A stretch of 64,000 bases of DNA, taken from Gemmatimonadota bacterium (GTDB lineage: Bacteria > Gemmatimonadota > Gemmatimonadetes > Longimicrobiales > Gaopeijiaceae). The translations under genes were made by a program, and so were the position numbers. Positions within the stretch are counted from its first letter, which is position 1. Every line of letters starts with the position of its first letter. The DNA lies in contig JAJDYN010000014.1 in NCBI GenBank assembly GCA_022825135.1, positions 62,001 through 126,000 of the forward strand, given 5' to 3'. The notes beneath the pieces were generated by a model, which saw only the letters and a list, made by a program, of their open reading frames with translations, did not search any database and was not told the DNA's origin. This document shows positions 51,636-53,023 of this stretch, piece after piece.

Positions 51636-52664
51636 TCACCGCTGCGGCCCCGGAGCGCCCGGGCCGCCACCGGGCGATCCACCGGAAGGCGCCAGGGACA
51701 CACCGGCCATCTGCCGTCGCAGTGCGCGGATGCCCGCGGGACCGACGCGGCAGCACCCGCCGACTCCCGCGGCGCCGCTCGCGATCCAGTCGCGCGCATC
51801 CGGGATCGCGTCGCCGGCCCGTCCGGCGCCTGCGGCGGGCCAGTGCCACGTGCCGGTGTGGGCGTCGTACACCTCCCCCGAGTTGGGATAGGCGATTACG
51901 GGAAGATCGGTCACGGTGCGGATTCGCCCGATGAGCTCGCCGACATGGGCGGGCGCGACGCAGTTGACTCCCACCGCCGCCATCCGCGCCGTCCGGTCGC
52001 AGAGGCGCGCAACCTCCTCCACCGGCGTGCCGTCCCAGAGCCGCGCGCCATCCGCGCAGCAGAAGCTCATCCACACCCACGCATCCGGCGTCTCCTCCAG
52101 AATCCCGACCAATGCCTCGGCCTCGAGACCCGAGGGGATGGTCTCGCAGAGGATCAGGTCGGCGGCCGAGCGCGCGAAGAGCCGGAAGCGGCGCCGGTGG
52201 AACTCGTCCAGCACCCCGAACCCGACGCCGTACCGGCCATCGTACTCCGACCCGTCCGCGAGATACGCCCCGTATGGGCCGGCACTCGCCGCCACCAGCG
52301 GCCGCAGCCGCCCGGTGCGGTTGGCCCGAACTGCCCAGTACCGGTCGCGCGCCTCGACGGCCAGCGCGACCGAGAGCTCCAGGAAGCCGGCGGCCTCGGC
52401 GTCGCCGTAGCCCTGCTCGCGGAAGCCGGGAAAGCTCGCCTGGTAGCTGGCGGTGGAGACGCAGTCCGCACCTGCTGCGAGGTATTCGGCGTGCACGTCG
52501 CGGATGGCATCGGGCCTTGAGACGAGAAGTTGCGCGGACCAGAGCCGGGTGTCGAGCCGGTGTCCCCGGGCTTCGAGCGCCGTCGCCAGACCCCCGTCCG
52601 CGATCAGGGGCCTTCCGCGAGCGAGAAATCCGGCAAGGGGCCCGGTCGCCTCCGCCGGGTTCAT
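51636..52664 (-). CDS. homocysteine S-methyltransferase family protein
   Basis: [84 protein letters not shown] zinc ligands. Confidence 0.92.
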
Positions 52665-53023
52665 CCCTCCCGGGTGAGCAGCGTCGCCAGCATCTCCGCG
52701 TTGTATCCCACCAGCAGCCGATCCCCACTGCGCATCGTGGGCGCGCGCAGCTTTCCGAAGCGGCTGCAGAGGAGGCCCACCAGGTCTTCGTCGGCGGGCC
52801 GCGCGGCGTTCAGATCGACGTGCACGATCTTCTTTCCCCTGGCGACGTAGAGGTCGCTCACGCCCTCCAGCACGCCCAGGACCTCGTCGCTCGTCACGGA
52901 ATTGCGCGTGGCGCTCTGCAGTTCCTCCGTCGCGATCTCGTTCTGCGCAAGAAACTCTTGCGTGCGCTTGCAACTGGTTCAGCCCGGGCGGTGATACCGC
53001 CATTCAACGGACGACGTGGCCAT
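52661..53023 (-). CDS. candidate ArsC/glutaredoxin-like selenoprotein; in-frame UGA (52979..52981) read as selenocysteine
   Basis: ATG 53023 with GGAGGG upstream; MATSSVEWRYHRPG[U][105 protein letters not shown]; UxxC in place of CxxC; hairpin downstream; ATGA overlap with the next gene. Confidence 0.75.
52946..52962 (-). other. candidate bacterial SECIS stem-loop
   Basis: On the minus strand CGCAAGA-GUU-UCUUGCG, perfect 7-bp stem, beginning 16 nt after the UGA, apical loop starting with G. Confidence 0.6.

What the first reader, a model, noticed from the sequence alone, without database searches (positions are those of the whole stretch)
52661..53023. Hidden UGA-containing ArsC/glutaredoxin-like selenoprotein missed by the ORF track
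Seen: on the minus strand an ATG at 53023 with strong Shine-Dalgarno (GGAGGGACCA-ATG) opens a 121-codon frame broken by one UGA at 52981..52979. The stop falls exactly at the first redox position: ...WRYHRPG-U-TSCKRTQEFLAQNEI. The frame then continues with a thioredoxin-fold ArsC-like body (KLRAPTMRSGDRLLVGYNAEML) and ends in an ATGA overlap with the homocysteine methyltransferase gene. The ORF caller reports only a 79-aa fragment (52661..52897) and loses the active site. Known: selenocysteine commonly replaces the first Cys of CxxC in bacterial Trx-fold proteins. Inference: UGA is recoded as Sec.
Basis: partly seen in the sequence, partly recalled or inferred. Interest (0 to 1): 0.9.

Follow-up and report, generated by a model that had tools for sequence, protein, structure and literature searches.

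The report
ArsC/Spx-like bacterial selenoprotein gene
The gene really is interrupted by a UGA codon that is almost certainly read as selenocysteine in a small thioredoxin-fold redox protein, but this protein family is already catalogued, so it is a good correction of an annotation rather than a discovery.

Summary
Observation confirmed to the base: ATG 53023, in-frame TGA 52981-52979, stop 52663-52661, with an ATGA overlap into a homocysteine S-methyltransferase. Interpretation supported. The own genome (Gemmatimonadota) carries selA, selB, selD and a tRNA-Sec with anticodon UCA. The protein scores 112 bits (cut-off 85) against NCBIfam NF041106, "ArsC family (seleno)protein". A scan blind to the codon at this site returned 80 loci from Gemmatimonadota, Latescibacterota, Acidobacteriota and others; all 80 have TGA there. 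Metagenomic homologues with Cys at that place exist. A 7-bp hairpin starting 16 nt after the UGA, with loop A-GUU-U, fits the published bacterial SECIS model. It covaries (G-C/U-A/A-U and A-U/G-C) and is far more paired than codon choice explains (67 of 72 fully paired; 0.13 expected). AlphaFold gives a confident thioredoxin-like fold, nearest to Spx. The ArsC Arg preceding the cis-Pro is Ala, so arsenate reduction is unlikely; I favour a UxxC selenol/thiol oxidoreductase whose substrate is unknown. The family is listed in a 2026 review of prokaryotic selenoproteins (NF041106, UxxC), so this is a new member of a known kind. Biochemical proof (Se-75, MS) is missing.

The parts
52661..53023 (-). 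seleno-ArsC-like gene (NF041106), 120 aa with Sec15, plus stop
52979..52981 (-). in-frame UGA, read as selenocysteine (U15 of the U-T-S-C motif)
   Evidence: TGA in 80/80 loci of the codon-blind scan; 41/41 over-cut-off hits in 201 Gemmatimonadota genomes have one TGA
52946..52962 (-). bacterial SECIS hairpin CGCAAGA-GUU-UCUUGCG, 16 nt after the UGA
53024..53033 (-). Shine-Dalgarno region GGAGGGACCA before the ATG
51636..52664 (-). downstream homocysteine S-methyltransferase (PF02574, NF007020), ATGA overlap with the selenoprotein gene

Best explanation
The gene encodes a 120-aa selenoprotein of the ArsC/Spx branch of the thioredoxin fold. Ribosomes decode the UGA at codon 15 as selenocysteine: SelB bound to the hairpin just downstream brings Sec-tRNA(UCA). 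The product has a U-T-S-C motif at the N-terminus of helix 1, and most likely acts as a selenol/thiol-disulfide oxidoreductase (glutaredoxin-like), with Sec15 attacking the substrate and Cys18 resolving. Shown here by sequence: frame, UGA conservation, SECIS covariation, Sec machinery and family membership. Inferred: actual Sec insertion, catalysis, and the substrate, which is unknown. The stated confidence is for the selenoprotein reading; I put the oxidoreductase role at about 0.75.
For: Frame and UGA. NF041106 112 bits against cut-off 85, while Spx, ArsC and Grx models stay below cut-off. UGA universal in orthologues across phyla. Cys homologues. 98.1% of hairpin cells paired, 29 cells changed on both sides, 0/500 shuffles as high; slid controls 31-71% paired. 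Codon-preserving control: 67/72 fully paired against mean 0.13, max 2. selA 522 bits, selB 310 bits, selD 295 bits, all over cut-off; tRNA-Sec 74.8 bits against cut-off 47, anticodon tca. Same-family genomes with selA have the gene in 20 of 29, without selA in 1 of 8 (that one an assembly-edge fragment); Fisher p = 0.012. AlphaFold pLDDT 92, best PDB matches Spx.
Against: No protein-level evidence. The isolated 17-nt hairpin is -7.4 kcal/mol, just short of the published -7.5 limit (with 3-nt flanks -8.5). Structural similarity to Spx is only moderate (TM about 0.55). Neighbours vary between lineages, so the substrate cannot be read from context.
Confidence: 0.95

Rival explanations
1. Pseudogene or sequencing/assembly error: the TGA is a true nonsense mutation or a miscall and no full-length product is made.
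For: A single stop in an otherwise open frame is what a recent nonsense mutation looks like.
Against: The same TGA stands in every orthologue read, including different phyla and assemblies, with protein conservation on both sides, and a covarying SECIS hairpin is conserved.
Confidence: 0.01
2. Real selenoprotein that works as a selenium-dependent arsenate reductase.
For: Pfam ArsC PF03960 matches just over its cut-off (27.1 against 24). His at the -4 position before the catalytic residue, as in ArsC (family knowledge), is invariant here.
Against: The Arg directly before the cis-Pro in ArsC (RPIV) is an invariant Ala here (LRAP), and the GRP motif near the C-terminus is VGYN. A UGA-bearing ORF that does keep RPIV and GRP (L146, L147) is a separate group at 20-22% identity. 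No ars gene appeared among the neighbours tallied.
Confidence: 0.06
3. Real selenoprotein acting as an Spx-like redox-sensing regulator that binds RNA polymerase.
For: Spx is the nearest solved structure by sequence (E 8e-8) and by fold (E 3.7e-5); both carry a CxxC/UxxC switch at the same place.
Against: Spx models are far below cut-off (40.9 against 123). The helical insert of Spx/ArsC is partly a beta hairpin here (E57-62, E65-70). Spx is known mainly from Firmicutes (own knowledge).
Confidence: 0.08

Closest known systems
NCBIfam NF041106 ArsC_rel_Se_1 ('Arsenate reductase-like protein', UxxC, in PMC13188914; COG1393, UxxC, in PMC9312934)
   Same: Score over curated cut-off, UxxC, one Sec, same length and fold
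   Different: Nothing essential; the window gene is one more member
Arsenate reductase 1 (UxxS) and 2 (cd03032, UxxC) selenoprotein groups of the Global Ocean Sampling study (PMC2398784)
   Same: ArsC superfamily with Sec at the first redox position; group 2 shares UxxC and may hold relatives of this family
   Different: Group 1 has UxxS; identity of group 2 with NF041106 was not tested
Spx (PDB 1z3e, 6gho, 3gfk)
   Same: ArsC-like thioredoxin fold with the redox motif at the start of helix 1
   Different: No Sec, helical insert, RNA polymerase regulator; 20-28% identity

Membership tests
NF041106 ArsC family (seleno)protein | Score at or above the curated cut-off (85 bits) | tested here: met
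   112 bits, residues 6-111 over profile 1-106 of 107
NF041106 ArsC family (seleno)protein | UxxC (or CxxC) motif with U/C aligned at the UGA | tested here: met
   UTSC; Cys homologues P0023, P0039, P0045 align at the site
Bacterial selenoprotein (Sec decoded from UGA) | selA, selB, selD and tRNA-Sec in the same genome | tested here: met
[quoted passage not shown]
   loop AGUUU (A-U closing), stem 6-7 bp, loop 22-23 nt after UGA, MFE -7.4 for the bare 17-mer and -8.5 with 3-nt flanks; energy only marginally met
Bacterial selenoprotein (Sec decoded from UGA) | Sec found in the protein (Se-75, MS) | not testable with these tools
   needs an experiment
Glutaredoxin-dependent arsenate reductase (ArsC) | Catalytic Arg before the cis-Pro (RPIV) and Arg of the C-terminal GRP/CRP motif | tested here: not met
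   LRAP and VGYN, invariant or nearly so in 46 sequences; which ArsC residues are catalytic is from family knowledge
Spx | Score over an Spx model cut-off | tested here: not met
   40.9 against 123, 35.2 against 75
Thioredoxin-like fold | Predicted fold | tested here: met
   pLDDT 92, pTM 0.85; best PDB matches Spx, glutaredoxin, ArsC-related

The most novel reading that the evidence does not exclude
The protein serves as a dedicated selenol reductant of sulfur assimilation. In some lineages the gene sits beside homocysteine S-methyltransferase (the window's genus plus loci L122 and L127), PAPS/APS reductase (six loci: L102, L104, L108, L111, L113, L124) or a MoeZ/ThiF-rhodanese (L112). This would give a function to an orphan selenoprotein family.
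Probability: 0.1. Interest if true: 0.45.

Novelty: new member of a known kind. Interest (0 to 1): 0.22.

Why it matters
It shows that UGA recoding is in use in this Gemmatimonadota lineage, and that ordinary gene callers lose the active site of this gene: many of the database hits are truncated proteins of 67-94 aa. It also gives 80 orthologues and a covarying SECIS element that make Sec insertion and substrate testable for a family without known function.

Tried and rejected
Pseudogene or sequencing error: rejected by UGA conservation. Reassignment of UGA as Trp or Gly: two database homologues carry W or G at the site (P0038, P0031), which is what gene callers using code tables 4 or 25 would print (inference); but TGA is also the ordinary stop of this very gene, and selA, selB, selD and tRNA-Sec are present. 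Arsenate reductase: key Arg residues absent. Function from neighbourhood: neighbours are heterogeneous (PAPS reductase 6, beta-lactamase-type 5, S9 peptidase 5, homocysteine methyltransferase 4, GNAT 3 of 58 adjacent genes), so only a weak lead. Rfam on the window gave nothing. The review's example protein MDE3003982.1 could not be looked up.

Full report
What is there. On the minus strand an ATG at 53023, preceded by GGAGGGACCA, opens a frame that reads MATSSVEWRYHRPG-UGA-TSCKRTQEFLAQNEI...LLTREG-stop (52661); the UGA is codon 15 at 52981-52979. The stop codon overlaps the start of the next gene as ATGA. That gene is a homocysteine S-methyltransferase (PF02574, 243 bits; NF007020, 347 bits). 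GC by codon position over the frame is 0.65/0.47/0.84, as in a real high-GC gene. A mechanical ORF list shows only the 78-aa tail, plus a misleading 455-aa extension of the methyltransferase frame.

Is it chance or a broken gene? No. All ten searched congeners have the full frame at 87-94% identity with exactly one TGA, and ten more genomes of the family have it at 50-60%, two of them partial. A scan of 85,488 species genomes used two peptide patterns that do not include the codon in question ([ED]WRYHRPG and a downstream motif) and returned 80 loci. All 80 carry TGA at the site: 78 by motif, and L096 and L105 by reading the translation. Titles name Gemmatimonadota, Latescibacterota, Acidobacteriota and a few 'Gammaproteobacteria' bins that are 90-92% identical to the window protein and so are probably misnamed. 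In 201 Gemmatimonadota genomes all 41 hits over the NF041106 cut-off have one TGA. Cys stands at the site in three metagenomic homologues (P0023, P0039, P0045).

Recoding signal. Sixteen nucleotides after the UGA comes CGCAAGA-GUU-UCUUGCG. Among 53 distinct sequences 98.1% of cells pair. One pair is G-C in 34, U-A in 13 and A-U in 4 sequences, another A-U in 40 and G-C in 12; none of 500 shuffles reaches the observed pairing or covariation score, and slid controls pair 31-71%. Keeping the amino acids and redrawing synonymous codons gives on average 0.13 of 72 fully paired stems (maximum 2 in 300 draws) against 67 observed. [quoted passage not shown] The energy is marginal for the bare hairpin (-7.4) and met with flanks (-8.5).

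Machinery. The own genome has tRNA-Sec (74.8 bits, anticodon tca), selA (522 bits), selB (310 bits) and selD (295 bits), all over cut-off. Among 37 genomes of the same family, 20 of 29 with selA have the gene and 1 of 8 without selA does, the one being an assembly-edge fragment (Fisher p = 0.012; genomes are related, so p is only indicative).

What kind of protein. NCBIfam NF041106 'ArsC family (seleno)protein' matches at 112 bits against a cut-off of 85; Spx, ArsC and glutaredoxin models stay below theirs. Pfam ArsC PF03960 matches at 27.1 against 24. AlphaFold on a 46-sequence alignment gives pLDDT 92, pTM 0.85, with Spx as best PDB match (TM about 0.5-0.56). The helical insert of ArsC/Spx is partly a beta hairpin here. 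Invariant residues include W8 R9 Y10 H11 R12 G14 U15 C18 G90 L92-P95 G100 G106. The ArsC Arg before the cis-Pro is Ala and the GRP motif is VGYN, so arsenate reduction is unlikely. The likeliest activity is a selenol/thiol-disulfide exchange with Sec15 attacking and Cys18 resolving (inference from UxxC chemistry).

Context. Neighbours differ between lineages. Sulfur-metabolism genes recur (homocysteine methyltransferase in the window's genus, L122 and L127; PAPS reductase in six loci, four of them titled Latescibacterota; a MoeZ-like gene in L112), but many others are unrelated. This is a lead, not evidence. Neighbour genes were called with a simple home-made codon score, so some boundaries may be off.

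Known or new. The family is in the 2026 list of prokaryotic selenoproteins as 'Arsenate reductase-like protein, NF041106, UxxC' (PMC13188914) and in the 2022 list (PMC9312934); ArsC-type selenoproteins have been reported since 2005-2008 (PMC1088965, PMC1794560, PMC2398784). The window gene is therefore a new member of a known kind. Sec insertion itself remains unproven here at the protein level.

Noticed in passing
L142, L143, L144, L145 (one genus of another family of the same class): A divergent UGA-bearing clade (MTEVTLFYQRPG-U-TSCKRTRAVFDETGA...), 107 aa; the two members scanned score 72 and 82 bits, just under the NF041106 cut-off of 85. Ten genomes have it, all with one TGA. The model may miss it.
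   Followed up: partly
L146:1971-2336 (-), L147:1968-2333 (+): A different UGA-bearing ORF with U-T-T-C that keeps the ArsC motifs RPIV and GRP and scores 100-101 bits against the arsenate reductase model TIGR00014 (cut-off 106): probably a selenium-dependent arsenate reductase-type protein.
   Followed up: partly
L149 (own genome, contig C16): The selD match lies in a frame that starts as an NAD(P)/FAD-type oxidoreductase, so SelD appears to be a fusion, with a Cys-type GGCGSK active site.
   Followed up: no
window 55416-55500 (+): ARAGORN calls a tRNA-Leu(GAG) antisense inside the MutS-like frame 55264-57213, but Rfam at gathering threshold finds no tRNA there: probably a false positive.
   Followed up: no
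L102, L104, L108, L111, L113, L124: A phosphoadenylyl-sulfate reductase gene ends directly upstream of the seleno-ArsC gene; a possible redox partner.
   Followed up: partly
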